From a virus, in IMG/VR virus record IMGVR_UViG_3300032087_001311, positions 1 through 28,095 of that record: a stretch of 28,095 nucleotides of DNA, one strand, 5' to 3'. The translations under genes and the position numbers were made by a program. The notes under the pieces were generated by a model. That model was not told the origin of the DNA. It saw only the letters and a list, made by a program, of their open reading frames with translations, and did not search any database. The stretch's first letter is position 1, and every line of letters begins with the position of its first letter. Shown here one piece after another: positions 3,282 through 18,413 of this stretch.

Positions 3282-3381
3282 CTGTCAACATACCTTTAAT
3301 TTCTTTTAGTTCCTCATGGATATCCTGATGATGAAACCGCAAAGGCTTCTGAATTAACTTTTTCAATTTTTTATCCTTCAT
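3178..3381 (-). CDS. Short coiled-coil protein, 67 aa
   Basis: The product MKDKKLKKLIQ... has a heptad-like stretch from about residue 20 to 50 (IHEELKEIKGMLTDVISQVQ and LQQRVESL) and an acidic end (SEYDDDYLR). It lies between tRNA-Val and the zinc-ribbon gene, and its last 104 bases overlap that gene in a different frame. The coiled-coil pattern and the lack of any other gene at 3282-3381 support it, but the long overlap is a reason for caution. It may be a small structural or adaptor protein; no function can be assigned. Confidence 0.6.
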   Translation of the reverse strand: MKDKKLKKLIQKPLRFHHQDIHEELKEIKGMLTDVISQVQTLQQRVESLRQQDAHVWVSEYDDDYLR

Positions 3382-3396
3382 GGATCTTATGAGGCA

Positions 3397-3468
3397 TGGG
3401 CGATACTGGAATCGAACCAGTGACTTACCACTTGTAAGGAGGCCACTCTACCGCTGAGTTAATCGCCC
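3397..3468 (-). tRNA. tRNA-Val (anticodon TAC)
   Basis: A full cloverleaf of 72 bases. The acceptor stem GGGCGAT/ATCGCCC is perfect, the D arm is ACTC/GAGT, the T arm ACTGG-TTCGATT-CCAGT is perfect, and the anticodon loop is CTTACAA. The anticodon stem (GCCTC/GTGGT) has one T-T mismatch. The discriminator is A and the 3' CCA is not encoded. Confidence 0.9.
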
Positions 3469-3644
3469 GATACACTACACTTATCCGTATGCTATGTGGG
3501 CACTCAACCCAGTATACTGACAGTTTGTAATGGAGTAGGACAGGGGTCCTCCCTGAACATCCAAAGGGGGCTGATTCCCAACTACAGGGTTTCGGTATAT
3601 CCGAACCGCTGGGCACCTTTGGTTGGAAGATCTCAACTTCCTTA
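3469..3644 (-). other. Structured spacer between tRNA-Asn and tRNA-Val
   Basis: These 176 bases hold no convincing gene. They contain at least four short perfect hairpins: 3497-3511 (TGGG/CCCA, 7-base loop), 3541-3555 (CAGGG/CCCTG), 3591-3605 (TTCGG/CCGAA) and 3625-3641 (GGAAG/CTTCC, 7-base loop). On the minus strand two of the loops begin TTGAG. The spacer could be a structured RNA released by processing of its tRNA neighbours, or decayed tRNA genes. I could not fold a complete tRNA from it. Confidence 0.4.
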
Positions 3645-3716
3645 CTCCCCTTCCTGGGATCGAACCAGGGACCAAACGATTAACAGTCGTTCGCTCTACC
3701 GCTGAGCTAAAGAGGA
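3645..3716 (-). tRNA. tRNA-Asn (anticodon GTT)
   Basis: A 72-base cloverleaf: acceptor TCCTCTT/AAGGGGA with one T-G pair, D arm GCTC/GAGC, perfect anticodon stem AACGA/TCGTT with loop CTGTTAA, T arm CCTGG-TTCGATC-CCAGG. The discriminator is G and CCA is not encoded. It reads AAC/AAU codons. Confidence 0.93.
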
Positions 3717-3719
3717 TTG

Positions 3720-3727
3720 AATAAATA
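3720..3727 (+). promoter_or_regulatory. Putative plus-strand late promoter (AATAAATA)
   Basis: AATAAATA on the plus strand lies 23 bases before the ATG of the only plus-strand gene in the window and just outside the 5' end of the divergent tRNA-Asn. It matches the T4-type late core ATAAATA. Confidence 0.5.
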
Positions 3728-3750
3728 AATTGTAATCTATCTATGTGAAA

Positions 3751-3951
3751 ATGGCAACCAGGAAAACTACCAGGAAACCATCAGTTTCCGCAGAACCTGC
3801 GGTAGAAATTTCTGATGATGTATATATGTCTAAGTATGACAAGATTTCTGAAGAGAAGTTTGCAGAACTAGAAGCTCGTATTGCAAAACTTGAAGCATTT
3901 GAAGCTCAAGCAAAACAGATTAAAGGTTGGTTTCCACAGAAGTGGAGTTAA
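3751..3951 (+). CDS. Plus-strand hypothetical protein, 66 aa, coiled-coil
   Basis: This is the only gene I call on the plus strand. The product has a basic N-terminus (MATRKTTRKPS), an acidic linker, and a helix with coiled-coil character (EEKFAELEARIAKLEAFEAQAK), ending GWFPQKWS. The ATG at 3751 is preferred over the in-frame GTG at 3745. An AATAAATA late-type promoter sits just upstream, so it could be a late, perhaps virion, protein; that is inference. Its stop and the stop of the convergent minus-strand gene share the palindrome TTAA (3948-3951). Function unknown. Confidence 0.75.
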   Translation: MATRKTTRKPSVSAEPAVEISDDVYMSKYDKISEEKFAELEARIAKLEAFEAQAKQIKGWFPQKWS

Positions 3952-4265
3952 TCTCTTTGTCGCCAATCATCAGGTTTGTCACGTTGAAACCAATCTACAA
4001 TTTCATCTGCAGACCCAAACCCCGTTTTGTGATTGGATGGGTCGGGGTCACCTAGTCCCATCCTATTCATAAAATCATCCAAACTACCTTCTTGCATGTC
4101 GGGATTAGTTGCAACTCGACGTGCTTTTTTAAGCATTTCACGGGCAGTAGTATTTGCCTTACCAAGTTTTTCTGCCCAAATCATGTCATCAAGTTTGACT
4201 TCTTCACCGTTAGCAATACACTTACAGATAAACTCTAATCTCAGTCTATATTGAGTAGATAACAT
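3948..4265 (-). CDS. Conserved cyanophage hypothetical, 105 aa
   Basis: The product begins MLSTQYRLRLEFICKCIANG and continues with a helical region (EVKLDDMIWAEKLGKANTTA), then an acidic and polar C-terminal half ending DWFQRDKPDDWRQRD. I recognise the type as a recurrent cyanophage protein but know no function. No transmembrane segment or catalytic motif is seen. The helical N-terminal half could be DNA-binding, but there is no clear helix-turn-helix. It lies one base after the 63-aa gene, in the same unit, and converges on the plus-strand gene. Confidence 0.85.
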   Translation of the reverse strand: MLSTQYRLRLEFICKCIANGEEVKLDDMIWAEKLGKANTTAREMLKKARRVATNPDMQEGSLDDFMNRMGLGDPDPSNHKTGFGSADEIVDWFQRDKPDDWRQRD

Positions 4266-5837: not shown

Positions 5838-6131
5838 TTATTTGCCTTTGCCTGTTACAAGACCTTTTGTAAAGTCTACAACTGCCCCTGCACCAGTCTT
5901 CAGATCCTTGAGACGTTTCATTTGGGTCTCCTTAGAGGCCTTCATACCAGCATCACTAACTCCTCTTACTTGAGCACCACGGTGTTGTGCAGATCCTGGC
6001 TGGGTCCCTGCCTTCCCTGTGGCGTACCCTTTATAGAAGTCACCGACTGCAGACGCAGCCCTATTAATATACTGCCTGGTGGTCGCCCCTGCGCCTCTGG
6101 CGTCCTCTTGAAATTGTTGAAAGGTCTTCAT
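5838..6131 (-). CDS. Small basic Gly/Ala-rich protein, 97 aa, probable virion component
   Basis: The product starts MKTFQQFQEDARGAGATT and is basic and rich in Gly, Ala and Thr, with two similar segments (AVGDFYKGYATGKAG and AVVDFTKGLVTGKGK), which suggests an internal duplication. The frame opens at 6170, but the late promoter TATAAATA at 6157-6164 lies inside that extension, so ATG 6131 is the sensible start. The MKTF-QF opening recurs in the 61-aa gene at 13821 and is common in cyanophage late genes. A terminator follows. A late, DNA- or capsid-associated role is inferred from promoter, charge and composition only. Confidence 0.8.
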   Translation of the reverse strand: MKTFQQFQEDARGAGATTRQYINRAASAVGDFYKGYATGKAGTQPGSAQHRGAQVRGVSDAGMKASKETQMKRLKDLKTGAGAVVDFTKGLVTGKGK

Positions 6132-6156
6132 TTGCCTGCAAGTTTTCCCTATGTGA

Positions 6157-6164
6157 TATTTATA
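6157..6164 (-). promoter_or_regulatory. T4-type late promoter TATAAATA
   Basis: A perfect TATAAATA on the minus strand, 25 bases before the ATG of the 97-aa gene and just after the terminator of the oxygenase gene. This is the T4 late consensus. Confidence 0.75.
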
Positions 6165-6175
6165 ATTCATGACAA

Positions 6176-13820: not shown

Positions 13821-14006
13821 TCACGCTTTCTTTTTTGCAATCTTAGTTGCAGTTGCGTACATCACAGACTTAGCATCATCCCCATAACGGGCCTCAAAGT
13901 CCTTCTTGTTTTTCTTCATGGACTTGACGATCTCCTCTTTCTTATCCTTCTCAGGTTCAGTCAGAGTTTTTTCAATCAAGTCCTGGAACTGTTTAAAAGT
14001 TTTCAT
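13821..14006 (-). CDS. Small basic late protein, 61 aa
   Basis: The product MKTFKQFQDLIEKTLTEPEK continues with a basic helical region and RYGDDAKSVMYATATKIAKKK. The RYG-DAKSVMYATATK block is a motif I have seen at the ends of several cyanophage virion-associated proteins; its role is unknown. ATG 14006 shares a base with the stop of the 696-aa gene (TGATG), so it is coupled to that probable virion gene; the GTG one codon earlier is less likely. A companion structural protein is the best guess. Confidence 0.8.
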   Translation of the reverse strand: MKTFKQFQDLIEKTLTEPEKDKKEEIVKSMKKNKKDFEARYGDDAKSVMYATATKIAKKKA

Positions 14007-16096
14007 CACTTTCTAGGTCCAATTTGACCAAAGCCATATTTGCGGTAGAGTCCAATCTTTTCAATTGAACTCATGGGTTTTGTTGTAGACCCACCTGATT
14101 TATCATAGACCTTCATAACTGGTCTACCATTCAGTCTTGCAGGGTATCTTTTACCAACCTCAACAGACTTAGTTCCAGATCCACTTTCACCTGGTTTTGG
14201 AGTTACAGTTTTTGGTCCAAAGAACTCATCAATCTGATCACCGTCTGGTTCAAAAGAATTGTTCTGTTGAACTACCTTTCCACCCTGCAACATTGGATTT
14301 GGTTTACGGTTGGTCTTAGCAGTACCACCTGCACTCATAGAGGCAGTAGATGTATTTGTTCCTCTACCAGTCTGCTGACCGTGAACATTCTCACCTGGCT
14401 TACGACGCTTACCCTGAGTTGTGTACTTAGTGTTACGGTTCCAAGGAAGAGCGTCAGTGACATCGGCAACCATTCGCGCTACATCCTCGGTGTGATAACC
14501 CTTGTTGTCACAATGCTTGCAACCATCACCTTTACATTCAGGACAAACTTCTTTGCCCTCCATCTTAGGCATGATCTCTACTTTGTTCTTGACACCTTTC
14601 TCTTTAATAGTGCCAACTTCATCAGTGTCCTTGATTACTTCAGTGAGGTCTTGTCTCCAGTTAGAGAGAGACTCTCTATAACCAACCTTCTTTTTCTTGA
14701 CAGGTTTACCTTTAAGAGTTCCATCAGCGACTGGTGGGACAAGAATTTTGGTGACTGTATTAGCGAGGGCGGCCCCAGGATTAAATTTTCTAATATCTTC
14801 CAGAACTTCAAGGTTCTTGTCATAATTATCGAAGTGTTCATGAGCTTCTGCATAGACAACCTCAAGGTTCTCTACTGCAACGTTCTCAAGGATGGCACCA
14901 TCTTCAAACTGAATGTCGTAATGAGTTACGGTTCCGTCTTCTAACATGGTGTGCATTTCTGGAATGCACTTTGCCTTCTTACCCTTGTACTTTACGTCCT
15001 TTGCACAGAGATGGGTCTTCTTACCCATGGCCTTTGCAACAGTCTTACGACGGTTTGCAAGATAAGAATCAGAAGAATCCTCATCACCATCGTTATCGAT
15101 GTCACCATCTTCCTTACCAACGGGGTCAAGTTTCTTGGCCTCACTGGTTACACTTCTCTTCTTAACTTTACTCGCAAAACCACCACCTTCTTTTGCAGCT
15201 CTCTTGGTGTCTTCTTTCTCATCAGACTTCTTGAGATCACCACCACCCTTAGCAAGGGCTTTCTTCTCACCCCTATCCTCAGGCGCATCACCTTCGTCAG
15301 TCATCTCAACAGATGCGATCTTAGGATCATTACGCATCTGTGCGATCATCTCTCTGGTTGCATAACGAATATAAGAAGAACCAGTCTCCTTATGTTTTAC
15401 GCGAACCTTGTACTTGGTTCCAGATTTTGTTTCCTTAGTGGTTACTTCAAGAATGAGATCATTGATTTCCTTTTCATCCCACTCAAGACCTTCGGGTCTA
15501 TATGTCTTGGATCTATCACTACCAGTAGGTCTTGCAGTTCCACGACCACTACCTCTAGCTGGACTTACAACAGCTTTAAGACCAGCTTTAACTGGTTTAG
15601 CAACAGTATCGATTGCTCTGGTAATATTTCTGACTGCTTGTTTTTCTTGTTTGGGAGTCTGTCCTGATGGTTTTAAAACAGTATTGATTGCCTTGGCAGT
15701 TCCAGTTACAAGACCTGCACCCTCTTCGACCATCTCAGTGTCGCCGAAGAACTCATCCCACTCAGCAGACTCTTTGAAACCTTGGAAGGCATTGGCAACC
15801 TGTGCCTTCTTACGAGTATCGACAGAGAACAACAGTTGATTCGCTTCAACGAATCTAGCAAACTGTTTTACAGACATCTGATACTTCTCAGCCTGTTCTG
15901 TAAAAGCACCTTCCTTACGGATTTTTACCATAGGACGGCGATCACCACCCAGAGGAATCTTAGGTTCACCAGCTGGGTTACTCTTTGTATTCTTGAGTCG
16001 TTCCTTCTCGGGTTCAGGAACGGATGCCTCGGCAATCTTACCGTAAGCGTCAACGAACGACTGATACTCAGAGCGAACTTGTTTAGAGTCCTTCAT
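14006..16096 (-). CDS. Large modular probable virion protein, 696 aa
   Basis: A long, polar, low-complexity protein with distinct modules. Residues 1-120 are helical with an acidic end (WDEFFGDTEMVEEG). Residues 215-262 contain KYKVRVKHKETGSSYIRYAT and REMIAQMRNDP. At 330-338 DGDIDNDGD offers a DxDxDG calcium-loop pattern, followed by SYLANRRKTVAKAM. Residues 518-529 (CPECKGDGCKHC) form a DnaJ-like zinc knuckle. The end is basic (KYGFGQIGPRK). The DGDIDNDGDED-SYL-RR signature is typical of large cyanophage virion proteins; no enzyme domain is visible. A late promoter lies 35 bases upstream within the preceding gene, and ATGA/TGATG overlaps couple it on both sides. An internal head or scaffold-like role is inferred. 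Confidence 0.85.
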   Translation of the reverse strand: MKDSKQVRSEYQSFVDAYGKIAEASVPEPEKERLKNTKSNPAGEPKIPLGGDRRPMVKIRKEGAFTEQAEKYQMSVKQFARFVEANQLLFSVDTRKKAQVANAFQGFKESAEWDEFFGDTEMVEEGAGLVTGTAKAINTVLKPSGQTPKQEKQAVRNITRAIDTVAKPVKAGLKAVVSPARGSGRGTARPTGSDRSKTYRPEGLEWDEKEINDLILEVTTKETKSGTKYKVRVKHKETGSSYIRYATREMIAQMRNDPKIASVEMTDEGDAPEDRGEKKALAKGGGDLKKSDEKEDTKRAAKEGGGFASKVKKRSVTSEAKKLDPVGKEDGDIDNDGDEDSSDSYLANRRKTVAKAMGKKTHLCAKDVKYKGKKAKCIPEMHTMLEDGTVTHYDIQFEDGAILENVAVENLEVVYAEAHEHFDNYDKNLEVLEDIRKFNPGAALANTVTKILVPPVADGTLKGKPVKKKKVGYRESLSNWRQDLTEVIKDTDEVGTIKEKGVKNKVEIMPKMEGKEVCPECKGDGCKHCDNKGYHTEDVARMVADVTDALPWNRNTKYTTQGKRRKPGENVHGQQTGRGTNTSTASMSAGGTAKTNRKPNPMLQGGKVVQQNNSFEPDGDQIDEFFGPKTVTPKPGESGSGTKSVEVGKRYPARLNGRPVMKVYDKSGGSTTKPMSSIEKIGLYRKYGFGQIGPRK

Positions 16097-17214
16097 GACT
16101 TTCTATAATTTTTGTACTGTTGCCTAAGTTTATTTATAATTGGATACTGTCCTGGGACCTTCGATGCAGTATATTCCGTATAGGCAGCAGTTCCATATCC
16201 CTTCTTCGTCTTATCAGAAACTTCAATCAAATCTTTCAACCAAGACTTGAACATAATATTATCTTCCGTAACTGCAATCACATAGTTCGCACCACGACGT
16301 GTGATCTCACCAATCAAGCCATGATTCATGTTCTCAACCCATGTACCAACCCGAAAGAGTTTCTTTGCGAAATAGTTTTCGCGCAGAGTATCTGGAAAGA
16401 GTTTAGGTGCAACTTGCCAACCCTCAGTCTTCACCTTCATACCCTTACGGATAGTATTGTAAAGTTGTTTGGTAGTCTTATCGTCTAGGTTCTTAGAAAT
16501 ACCAGACTTGAAAGTTTCATAGTCATCATCTAGTGCGGCTTTACGTAGCTTAGATGCAGACATACCTTCGACACCCTCGGCATCGGCATCACGTTCGCCG
16601 GCCGATACAACGTTAATCTTCGCAAAGTCGTATAACTGACCATTATATTTGTTGGCCAGGTTTTCAAACTCTTTAACTCTATCGGACCCAACCACAATAT
16701 TGACAGAGGAATATCCTTTTCCATGAGCCGCCTTCAATACATCAAAAATAGTTCTGGTCTTCTCATCATCAATAATAGAGTTTGCATGGTCAGGGAACAT
16801 CTGACGCATGTAATTAACCTTGTCACTGGCTTCCAAAGGATTTTTTTTAGGATCCTGAGAACGTGAAGGATAGATGCGATACTGACCACCCTTACCAGCA
16901 GTCTGTGCAATTGTGTTAATCAGTTTTTCGTGACCAATCGTAGGTGGATTGAAACGACCAAATCCTACAGTGATTGTATCAGAAGTTCTTTCCTCAGAAT
17001 CCTGTTCCTTTTCTTTCTGTACAGGTTGTTCTGGTTTTGCAGCCTCTTTCCCTTTGAAGATCTGGAGTCTACCCTTTACCGTTTTGGCACGCAGGTTTCC
17101 TTCCTTGTCGTACCAGTCACCATGATCATTACCAATCAGACCCATCTGTTTGGCCTGTTGAGAGGCCATCGTCTGACCCTCAAGAATAGTCCTGACTTTT
17201 TTAAAGAAACTCAC
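16093..17214 (-). CDS. NMN adenylyltransferase-like nucleotidyltransferase, 373 aa
   Basis: Residues 80-230 match the HxGH nucleotidyltransferase fold: TVGFGRFNPPTIGHEKLI (TIGH at 92-95, the (H/T)xGH motif), VNIVVGSDR near 171-179, and SASKLR at 219-224, equivalent to the ISSTxxR motif. NadM/NadR-type enzymes use this to join NMN and ATP into NAD. The first ~60 residues (with GNDHGDWYDKEGNLRAKTVKG) and the last ~110 (GLIGEITRRGANYVIAV, SH3-like) are extra modules shared with other cyanophage late proteins, so the enzyme may be virion-bound. The start is GTG at 17214, overlapping the 400-aa gene as GTGA; the stop overlaps the 696-aa gene as ATGA. The substrate is unproven. Confidence 0.85.
   Translation of the reverse strand: MSFFKKVRTILEGQTMASQQAKQMGLIGNDHGDWYDKEGNLRAKTVKGRLQIFKGKEAAKPEQPVQKEKEQDSEERTSDTITVGFGRFNPPTIGHEKLINTIAQTAGKGGQYRIYPSRSQDPKKNPLEASDKVNYMRQMFPDHANSIIDDEKTRTIFDVLKAAHGKGYSSVNIVVGSDRVKEFENLANKYNGQLYDFAKINVVSAGERDADAEGVEGMSASKLRKAALDDDYETFKSGISKNLDDKTTKQLYNTIRKGMKVKTEGWQVAPKLFPDTLRENYFAKKLFRVGTWVENMNHGLIGEITRRGANYVIAVTEDNIMFKSWLKDLIEVSDKTKKGYGTAAYTEYTASKVPGQYPIINKLRQQYKNYRKS
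16131..16138 (-). promoter_or_regulatory. T4-type late promoter inside the NMNAT-like coding region
   Basis: A perfect TATAAATA on the minus strand lies within the last codons of the 373-aa gene, 34 bases before the ATG of the 696-aa gene, the spacing seen at the other late promoters in this window. Confidence 0.65.
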
Positions 17215-18413
17215 GGTTTGTCCCAGTTCTTGTCTGCAGTGAAGTTGGCCCTTGAGAACTCTAGTCTATCAACTAACTTGAGTGCGTTCCCTGAACGGAT
17301 GGCCACAAATCCTTCTGGAGCCGTGACTCTATATCCGTTATCAGTGCGAAGGAAGGTTCCAATCTCCTGAACCCTCTCAAGTTTACGAATGACATAGTTC
17401 TTCGCTTCGATCAAATTCATATATGAAGCGACAGTAAAATATACGGATTTTTGATTTCGTTTTAAGAAATCAAGTCCTTCTGTCTTGATCTTCAAATATT
17501 TATCTTGAGTAGCTACTGTCTTTTTAGATTGCACTTCTTTCGTCAAAAGATCACTGTAGTACTTGTTGAAATCATCGACTACAAGTTGTGCGTTTGTAAT
17601 CTTTCTACCCTGTCTGATATATGAATTGAAAAACTGTTTGAACAGTTTATTCATTTGGAATTTACTCTGACCATAATCACCAAGAAGATCCAGAAACGCA
17701 CTGGCTTGTTTCAATGATCCTTCGGCACGATTCACCAACAGATTGAATTGTTGCAACTCAATCGGAGTCATACTAGCGGTTCCCGTAACATCTCTAAAGT
17801 CAGAACTGAATACCATCACTTCAGGATCACCTTGCAATTGTGAAACATCAGCTCCAAATTGTGCGTTCAGATCATCAAGAGTGGGACCAACGTAGGTGGT
17901 ATGGAAGACAATTCCAAGTTTTGCACGGAGAGCGCGCTTACCCATGTCACTAGAAACAGGTATCGCATAGACAATAGTGTTGGGTTGAAACGTAACACAC
18001 TGTTCATTGTTTACCAGGCGAGTGTCTTTATCATCTGTAAAGAGTAAATCACCCTGCAATACTCCAGGAATCCTATCCTTTAGTTTAGAAAGATACCTAT
18101 AGGAGTCTTTTAGTTTTTGTGCAAGTTGACTGTCACCATAGATGCGACTTGCATCAGCTTCACTGTAGATGATTTTAGGCGCAGTCTTAGCAAAAACAGA
18201 TTTAGTTCCAACAAAAAACTGTTTGGATACTGGATCAGTACCACAAATAATAGCAGGGGCTCCATCCCATTTAGTCGTAACCCTTACGTTTGACTTAGAT
18301 ACACTTAACATTTCTCCAAGTTCTCTGAGAAATGTTATTGCATTGAAACCCCCCTGTTTCCCCTGATTGAGGATGTCGTCTTCAAGGTGTTCCAGGTGAG
18401 TGTTTTTTGCCAT
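17211..18413 (-). CDS. Ligase-like nucleotidyltransferase candidate, 400 aa
   Basis: A conserved cyanophage protein normally left hypothetical. I see a set of motifs in the order found in DNA/RNA ligases: VTTKWDGAPA gives KxDG with Lys48 (motif I), GVLQGDLLF at 117-125 resembles motif III, NTIVYAIP resembles IIIa, APEGFVAI with EG at 367-368 resembles motif IV, and ALKLVDR with Lys379 resembles motif V, followed by a phenylalanine-containing end like RNA ligases. A helical insertion of about 200 residues separates III and IV. If right, Lys48 would take AMP from ATP or NAD. The neighbour is NMNAT-like, which makes NAD. GTGA and TGATG overlaps tie it to both neighbours. The fold is inferred by eye and unproven. 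Confidence 0.85.
   Translation of the reverse strand: MAKNTHLEHLEDDILNQGKQGGFNAITFLRELGEMLSVSKSNVRVTTKWDGAPAIICGTDPVSKQFFVGTKSVFAKTAPKIIYSEADASRIYGDSQLAQKLKDSYRYLSKLKDRIPGVLQGDLLFTDDKDTRLVNNEQCVTFQPNTIVYAIPVSSDMGKRALRAKLGIVFHTTYVGPTLDDLNAQFGADVSQLQGDPEVMVFSSDFRDVTGTASMTPIELQQFNLLVNRAEGSLKQASAFLDLLGDYGQSKFQMNKLFKQFFNSYIRQGRKITNAQLVVDDFNKYYSDLLTKEVQSKKTVATQDKYLKIKTEGLDFLKRNQKSVYFTVASYMNLIEAKNYVIRKLERVQEIGTFLRTDNGYRVTAPEGFVAIRSGNALKLVDRLEFSRANFTADKNWDKP

What the first reader, a model, noticed from the sequence alone, without database searches (positions are those of the whole stretch)
17211..18413. The 400-aa 'hypothetical' shows ligase/nucleotidyltransferase motifs in order
KWDG with Lys48, GVLQGDLLF, NTIVYAIP, PEGFVAI and ALKLVDR follow the order I, III, IIIa, IV, V of covalent nucleotidyltransferases. 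The spacing is unusual, with about 200 residues between III and IV. It may be a divergent RNA or DNA ligase or an AMP-transferring enzyme packaged with the virion.
Basis: inference. Interest (0 to 1): 0.62.

Follow-up and report, generated by a model that had tools for sequence, protein, structure and literature searches.

The report
Unannotated ligase-like enzyme family of cyanophages
A very common but unexplained gene of viruses that infect ocean cyanobacteria (Pfam DUF6267) carries, almost without exception, the reactive residues of enzymes that join or cap DNA/RNA ends, and it sits beside, and in some viruses is fused to, an NAD-synthesis-like enzyme; the predicted chemistry has not been tested.

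Summary
The ORF is real: 400 aa on the MINUS strand (18413 to 17211), full-length Pfam DUF6267/PHROG_455, function unknown, in 468 phage records, mostly cyanomyoviruses. In 226 distinct homologues K48, D50, G51, K71, Y149, E367, G368, K379 and R383 are invariant or broken once; D122 is Asp, once Glu. The ~217-residue IIIa-IV gap is a predicted five-helix insert, ~148 residues in short members. AlphaFold models are confident (pLDDT 91.5, 93.5). With the compact member the first seven PDB matches, and about half of the first 50, are DNA/RNA ligases or capping enzymes, but the best E is 0.026. Profile searches give no membership in any known ligase family. Two phages carry an intein directly after KxDG. 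Best reading: a new, divergent covalent nucleotidyltransferase family working with the adjacent NMNAT-like protein, to which it is fused in S-PM2 and L239. 'Packaged with the virion' is not supported for this protein: it lacks a capsid-targeting N-terminus and was not reported in the S-SZBM1 virion, where its neighbour was; homologues in other phages do carry such tags. Auto-adenylation is untested.

The parts
17211..18413 (-). DUF6267 protein, 400 aa, predicted covalent nucleotidyltransferase
18381..18398 (-). H6-E11 (HLEHLE): N-terminal segment with invariant H6, H9, E11
18261..18272 (-). motif I K48-W-D-G51, predicted nucleophile K48 at the end of strand 44-48; the intein of L236/L238 is inserted directly after this motif
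18192..18218 (-). motif Ia-like F66-F74 (FFVGTKSVF), invariant K71
18039..18065 (-). motif III-like G117-F125 (GVLQGDLLF), D122 in place of the usual Glu (Glu in L239)
17958..17981 (-). motif IIIa-like N145-P152 (NTIVYAIP), invariant N145, Y149 in 225 of 226
17379..17765 (-). helical insert, residues 217-345 (five predicted helices) with invariant N263 and K338; shorter in ~300-aa members
17298..17318 (-). motif IV P366-I372 (PEGFVAI), E367 and G368 invariant
17265..17285 (-). motif V-like A377-R383 (ALKLVDR), K379 and R383 invariant
16093..17214 (-). partner: NMNAT/cytidylyltransferase-like protein, GTG start overlapping the DUF6267 stop (GTGA); its N-terminus VSFFKKVRTILEG ends in an (L/I)xE site like a longer capsid-targeting tag (by eye)
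   Evidence: fused to DUF6267 in S-PM2 and L239
18413..19339 (-). upstream gene, 308 aa, phrog_13937, unknown function; its stop overlaps the DUF6267 start by one base (TGATG)

Best explanation
DUF6267 is a divergent family of the ligase/capping-type covalent nucleotidyltransferases. K48 of KxDG attacks the alpha-phosphate of ATP (possibly NAD+ or GTP) to form a lysyl-nucleotide, held by K71, D122, Y149, E367, K379 and R383, and passes the nucleotidyl group to a nucleic-acid 5' end or another acceptor, in cooperation with the adjacent HIGH-type NMNAT-like protein. The helical insert between IIIa and IV, with its own invariant N263 and K338, takes the place of the C-terminal domain of ordinary ligases as substrate platform. 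Shown: sequence, conservation, predicted secondary structure and fold lean, gene adjacency and fusion. Inferred: catalysis, nucleotide, substrate, role of the insert, cooperation with the partner.
For: Motif order and near-invariance of the catalytic set in 226 homologues. I-Ia, I-III and III-IIIa spacings of 21-23, 67-77 and 17-31 are close to T4 Rnl2 (K35, R55, E99: +20, +64; its IIIa residue from general knowledge). Models with pLDDT 91.5/93.5 place K48 at the end of a strand, then strands 54-59 and 66-69, helices, strand 118-125 (III), strand 147-152 (IIIa), strands 368-373 (IV) and 376-380 (V). PDB search of the compact member: ranks 1-7 are DNA ligases, and RNA-editing ligase, Naegleria RNA ligase, Clostridium Pnkp ligase, human capping enzyme and LigA also appear; in the long model's list an archaeal RNA ligase has the highest probability of the 50 rows shown, 0.20. 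An intein N-terminal region (TIGR01445, E=5e-11 and 5e-10) directly follows KLDG in two phages; inteins often sit in active-site motifs (general knowledge). Partner: start within 150 b downstream in 142 of 246 loci, elsewhere in the locus in 57; fusions in S-PM2 and L239; phrog_455 spans both.
Against: No Foldseek PDB match reaches E<=0.001; TM-scores are low. hhalign against Rnl1, Rnl2, T4, bacterial, LigA and LigD ligases is below 1% probability, like reversed profiles; HMMER with profiles of DUF6267 finds no ligase in the PDB. Asp in motif III, Lys in Ia, KLVDR in V; no C-terminal OB fold or motif VI, as the chain ends 17 residues after R383. No biochemistry. 47 of 246 loci show no partner within the stretch held.
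Confidence: 0.7

Rival explanations
1. A narrower form of the best explanation: it is specifically a polynucleotide (RNA or DNA) ligase supplying end-sealing in phages without a T4-type ligase, for example for phage DNA nicks or tRNA repair.
For: Fold hits are mostly ligases. P-TIM40, syn9, S-SZBM1, S-SCSM2R, S-RIM2 and two IMG/VR genomes give no DNA_ligase_A_M or RNA_lig_T4_1 match; the first three also give no RNA_ligase match.
Against: Pseudoalteromonas phage XG4 has all three ligase families and DUF6267 too. No C-terminal domain; the insert matched no nucleic-acid-binding domain in the searches made. Capping enzymes also appear among the hits.
Confidence: 0.35
2. Another narrower form: an NAD+-linked enzyme. 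DUF6267 uses NAD+ as AMP donor, releasing NMN, and the NMNAT-like partner rebuilds NAD+ from NMN and ATP.
For: Adjacency and fusion with an NMNAT-like protein (weak NadR/NadD-type NCBIfam matches); S-SM1 also has a gene annotated NAD synthetase; invariant H6/H9/E11 lie N-terminal to motif I, where LigA-type ligases have their NMN-binding region (general knowledge).
Against: No sequence match to LigA was found; the partner's substrate is unknown and databases call it a cytidyltransferase.
Confidence: 0.15
3. A head-packaged host-takeover protein whose ligase-like core now only binds a nucleotide or has a scaffolding role.
For: CTS-like N-termini M..[FYL]..[FYL][ILV].E in 37 of 49 distinct members of the middle group, e.g. 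MIRFNTFLTEA|KNTHMEHIED, against 27 of 564 other + strand ORFs and 0 of 180 antisense ORFs.
Against: 0 of 54 close cyanophage relatives have the tag; S-SZBM1_141 is not in the virion table that lists its neighbour _140; near-invariance of every predicted catalytic residue argues against loss of catalysis.
Confidence: 0.12
4. The motifs are a coincidence on an unrelated fold.
For: No significant sequence or fold statistic ties it to a known ligase family.
Against: Joint invariance of all motif residues in order and in strand context, and ligases heading the fold list.
Confidence: 0.13

Closest known systems
T4 RNA ligase 2 / RNA-editing ligase type (Rnl2, PF09414)
   Same: Motif order I-Ia-III-IIIa-IV-V; similar spacing up to IIIa; a segment N-terminal to motif I of similar length
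   Different: No profile match; Lys for Arg in Ia, Asp for Glu in III, KLVDR for KxK, IV-V gap 11-16 rather than ~21, long helical insert, no C-terminal domain
T4 RNA ligase 1 (PF09511)
   Same: KxDG nucleophile motif; EGYV motif IV with K240 13 residues after E227 in T4 Rnl1, close to the 11-16 seen here; weak Pfam match in 2 of 86 members (best E 0.071)
   Different: No profile-level relationship; no matching C-terminal domain
ATP-dependent DNA ligases / mRNA capping enzymes
   Same: Top fold matches of the compact member
   Different: Two-domain NTase plus OB fold with motif VI, absent here
Pfam DUF6267 / PHROG_455 / T4-GC71
   Same: Full-length member; S-SM1 and S-PM2 homologues are annotated T4-GC71
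   Different: These names carry no function
NMNAT-like 'cytidyltransferase' of cyanophage virions (T4-GC190, phrog_395)
   Same: Immediate downstream partner; fusion partner
   Different: HIGH-superfamily enzyme, a different fold and chemistry

Membership tests
Covalent nucleotidyltransferase superfamily (ligases, capping enzymes) | Motif I KxDG with the nucleophilic Lys | tested here: met
   K48/D50/G51 in every one of 226 distinct homologues but the ORF whose motif is split by an intein
Covalent nucleotidyltransferase superfamily (ligases, capping enzymes) | Motif Ia basic residue (usually Arg in ligases) | tested here: inconclusive
   K71 invariant 226/226, just after strand 66-69; Lys rather than the usual ligase Arg
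Covalent nucleotidyltransferase superfamily (ligases, capping enzymes) | Motif III acidic residue (Glu) | tested here: inconclusive
   Asp122 in 225, Glu in 1
Covalent nucleotidyltransferase superfamily (ligases, capping enzymes) | Motif IIIa aromatic residue | tested here: met
   Y149 in 225 of 226, on strand 147-152
Covalent nucleotidyltransferase superfamily (ligases, capping enzymes) | Motif IV Glu (EGxV) | tested here: met
   E367-G368 226/226
Covalent nucleotidyltransferase superfamily (ligases, capping enzymes) | Motif V KxK | tested here: inconclusive
   K379 226/226; the second Lys is absent, R383 four residues on is invariant
Covalent nucleotidyltransferase superfamily (ligases, capping enzymes) | NTase fold | tested here: inconclusive
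   Ligases and capping enzymes dominate the Foldseek list of the compact member, best E 0.026; the long model gives no usable list
Covalent nucleotidyltransferase superfamily (ligases, capping enzymes) | Lysyl-NMP intermediate | not testable with these tools
   Needs biochemistry
DNA ligase / capping enzyme two-domain type | C-terminal OB fold with motif VI | tested here: not met
   Chain ends 17 residues after R383
Rnl1 or Rnl2 RNA ligase families | Profile-level sequence membership | tested here: not met
Pfam DUF6267 | Full-length match above gathering score | tested here: met
   466.7 bits against cut-off 27
T4-type internal head proteins | N-terminal capsid targeting sequence ending (L/I)xE | tested here: not met
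   Window protein starts MAKNTHLEH; 0 of 54 close relatives tagged, 37 of 49 of another clade tagged

The most novel reading that the evidence does not exclude
DUF6267 and its NMNAT-like partner form a two-enzyme nucleotidyl-transfer system of T4-like phages, for instance NAD-linked ligation or cofactor capping of nucleic-acid 5' ends, one or both parts being delivered from the head at infection, with a ligase core whose substrate domain is inserted between motifs IIIa and IV.
Probability: 0.15. Interest if true: 0.82.

Novelty: new variant of a known kind. Interest (0 to 1): 0.6.

Why it matters
DUF6267 is in at least 468 phage records, chiefly viruses of Synechococcus and Prochlorococcus, and no paper in the library searched mentions it. 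A concrete catalytic prediction (K48 lysyl-nucleotide, named residues) makes the gene testable with one protein and one mutant. It may also help explain why NMNAT-like proteins keep turning up in cyanophage virions: their genetic partner is a predicted nucleotidyltransferase.

Tried and rejected
PDB sequence searches with the protein and with three profiles: no ligase found. Foldseek with the full-length model: list dominated by chance hits, so a compact relative was modelled. hhalign against seven ligase sets with reversed controls: indistinguishable from null. Pfam scan of 86 members: RNA_lig_T4_1 in 2, no better than unrelated families, so not counted as evidence. PADLOC: nothing relevant. 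NCBIfam: no match for the protein. Plasmids: no homologue. A viral-contig scan with the XG4 protein found nothing. The idea that the protein is itself a virion component was considered and set aside for cyanophages. Two jumbo-phage hits (CBB, Deifobo) are on their annotation the partner enzyme without an annotated DUF6267 beside it. A paper on phage RNA repair that might describe relatives was not held, so priority cannot be fully excluded.

Full report
What is there. The interval holds one 400-aa ORF on the minus strand. It is a full-length member of Pfam DUF6267 (E=9e-140) and PHROG_455, both of unknown function. NCBIfam and PADLOC have no match for it and no paper in the library searched contains 'DUF6267'. 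The window is a fragment of a T4-like cyanophage; the protein is 99% identical in S-PRM1 and S-CAM9, and 468 phage records encode a relative, mostly Synechococcus and Prochlorococcus phages, with a few of Pelagibacter, Methylophilales, Vibrio, Stenotrophomonas and Pseudoalteromonas. The gene overlaps its neighbours by one and four bases and dN/dS against four relatives is about 0.06-0.12 (from the values).

The motifs. I collected relatives in four productive viral scans and one genome scan and aligned 86 of them, down to 26% identity. Invariant columns are H6, H9, E11, K48, D50, G51, K71, N145, H171, N263, K338, E367, G368, K379, R383, F386 and N390. In 226 distinct full-length homologues the catalytic set holds everywhere but in two odd rows: L236, where the gene is split at this motif by an intein and the ORF used starts inside it, and L239, which keeps K, D and G but has Glu at 122 and Asn at 149.

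Spacing. I to Ia is 21-23 residues, I to III 67-77, III to IIIa 17-31, IV to V 11-16. T4 Rnl2 has K35, R55 and E99 (+20, +64) in the sequence held. The odd distance is IIIa to IV: median 217 in long members, 148 in short ones. The model shows five helices there (217-345) and the compact member three; N263 and K338 inside it are invariant, so it is a conserved part of the protein rather than a loose insertion.

Fold. AlphaFold2 gave pLDDT 91.5, pTM 0.87 for the window protein and 93.5, 0.88 for the 304-aa relative L181. K48 ends a strand, two strands and the Ia turn follow, III and IIIa are on strands, IV and V are on the last two strands: the order of the ligase nucleotidyltransferase domain (comparison with known ligase structures from general knowledge). 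Foldseek with the long model gave no meaningful PDB list, though an archaeal RNA ligase had the highest probability of the rows shown (0.20). With the compact model the first seven matches are all DNA ligases, and RNA-editing ligase, Naegleria RNA ligase, Clostridium Pnkp ligase, capping enzyme and LigA follow; by my count 24 of the 50 rows shown belong to this superfamily. No single match passes E=0.001 (best 0.026), and TM-scores are low, so this is a strong lean, not a proof. Related structures are listed many times, so the 24 are not independent.

Sequence-level membership fails. hhalign against T4 Rnl1, Rnl2, T4 DNA ligase, bacterial DNA ligases, LigA and LigD stays below 1% and equals reversed controls. 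Motif III has Asp, Ia has Lys, motif V is KLVDR, and no OB fold follows. I therefore do not file it as a ligase, only as something predicted to work like the first step of one.

An independent hint. In L236 and L238 the gene is interrupted directly after K-L-D-G by an intein N-terminal region beginning CVHRDTLV or CVHKDTLV (TIGR01445, E=5e-11 and 5e-10). In L236 the downstream ORF begins with 38 residues ending VIVHN and then SPSLVLGHHP, which continues the DUF6267 sequence. The layout looks like a naturally split intein; this is inferred from the ORFs. Inteins often settle in active-site motifs (general knowledge).

The partner. The next gene (16093-17214) is a HIGH-type cytidylyltransferase/NMNAT-like protein (Pfam CTP_transf_like, phrog_395; weak NadD/NadR matches). 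It starts within 150 bases downstream in 142 of 246 loci and lies elsewhere in the locus in 57. The two are fused in S-PM2 (591 aa) and L239 (601 aa). In S-SM1 the pair is T4-GC71 and T4-GC190.

Virion packaging. T4-GC190 was found in S-SM1 virions (PMC3037559), and the S-SZBM1 virion table lists the cytidylyltransferase _140 but not _141, which is DUF6267 (PMC9146016); S-CREM2 and S-SCSM1 also report a cytidylyltransferase or NMNAT-like protein in virions (PMC10665884, PMC9602691). Non-detection is not absence. T4 internal proteins enter the head through an N-terminal capsid targeting sequence cleaved after (L/I)xE (PMC9026906). A CTS-like N-terminus is on 73 of 118 distinct partner proteins, on 0 of 54 close relatives of the window protein, but on 37 of 49 of a middle group of DUF6267 (27 of 564 other + strand ORFs, 0 of 180 antisense). 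In many of these the tag ends directly before AKNTHMEH or KNTHMEH, so cleavage would leave nearly the N-terminus that the cyanophage protein (MAKNTHLEH) has from the start. Packaging is thus predicted for those phages and not for this one; no prohead-protease cleavage was tested.

Ligase background. Seven DUF6267-bearing phage genomes (five named cyanophages and two IMG/VR genomes) have no DNA_ligase_A_M or RNA_lig_T4_1 match, and the three of them tested for RNA_ligase have none; XG4 has all three families as well as DUF6267. So DUF6267 is not simply a replacement.

Verdict. A catalytic, ligase-like covalent nucleotidyltransferase: 0.7. A nucleic-acid ligase in the strict sense: 0.35 (a subset of the former). 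The protein family itself is known by name; the catalytic assignment, the intein at motif I and the packaging split between clades appear new within the limits of the library searched. One T4 Rnl2 query was typed rather than fetched; later ligase queries used the T4 record.

Noticed in passing
L236 1891-3957; L238 1512-2906: Intein, apparently naturally split, inserted directly after KxDG of DUF6267 in two viral contigs; an unassigned ORF lies between the halves (L236 2480-2899) or follows the first half (L238 2319-2906).
   Followed up: partly
L240-L319 group and others: CTS-like N-terminal tags on DUF6267 and on several neighbouring proteins of T4-like phages, suggesting a set of head-packaged proteins.
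   Followed up: partly
L233 and L235 2815-3387 / 3380-4117: DUF6267 split into two ORFs in overlapping frames after motif III in two contigs; real split or frameshift not resolved.
   Followed up: no
H8ZNG8 (metaG-MbCM1): A 728-aa protein that matches the DUF6267 model by fold is named 'NrdB ribonucleotide reductase A subunit'; likely a misannotation.
   Followed up: no
window 14006-16096 (-): 696-aa neighbour with an acidic stretch VGKEDGDIDNDGDEDSSDSY resembling a calcium-binding loop; function unknown.
   Followed up: no
window 5838-6170 (-): Small protein containing MKTFQQFQEDARGAG, close to the T4 internal-protein tag but without the (L/I)xE site.
   Followed up: no
records P-TIM40, syn9, S-SZBM1, S-SCSM2R, S-RIM2: No T4-type DNA ligase or Rnl1 family match in these complete cyanophage genomes.
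   Followed up: partly
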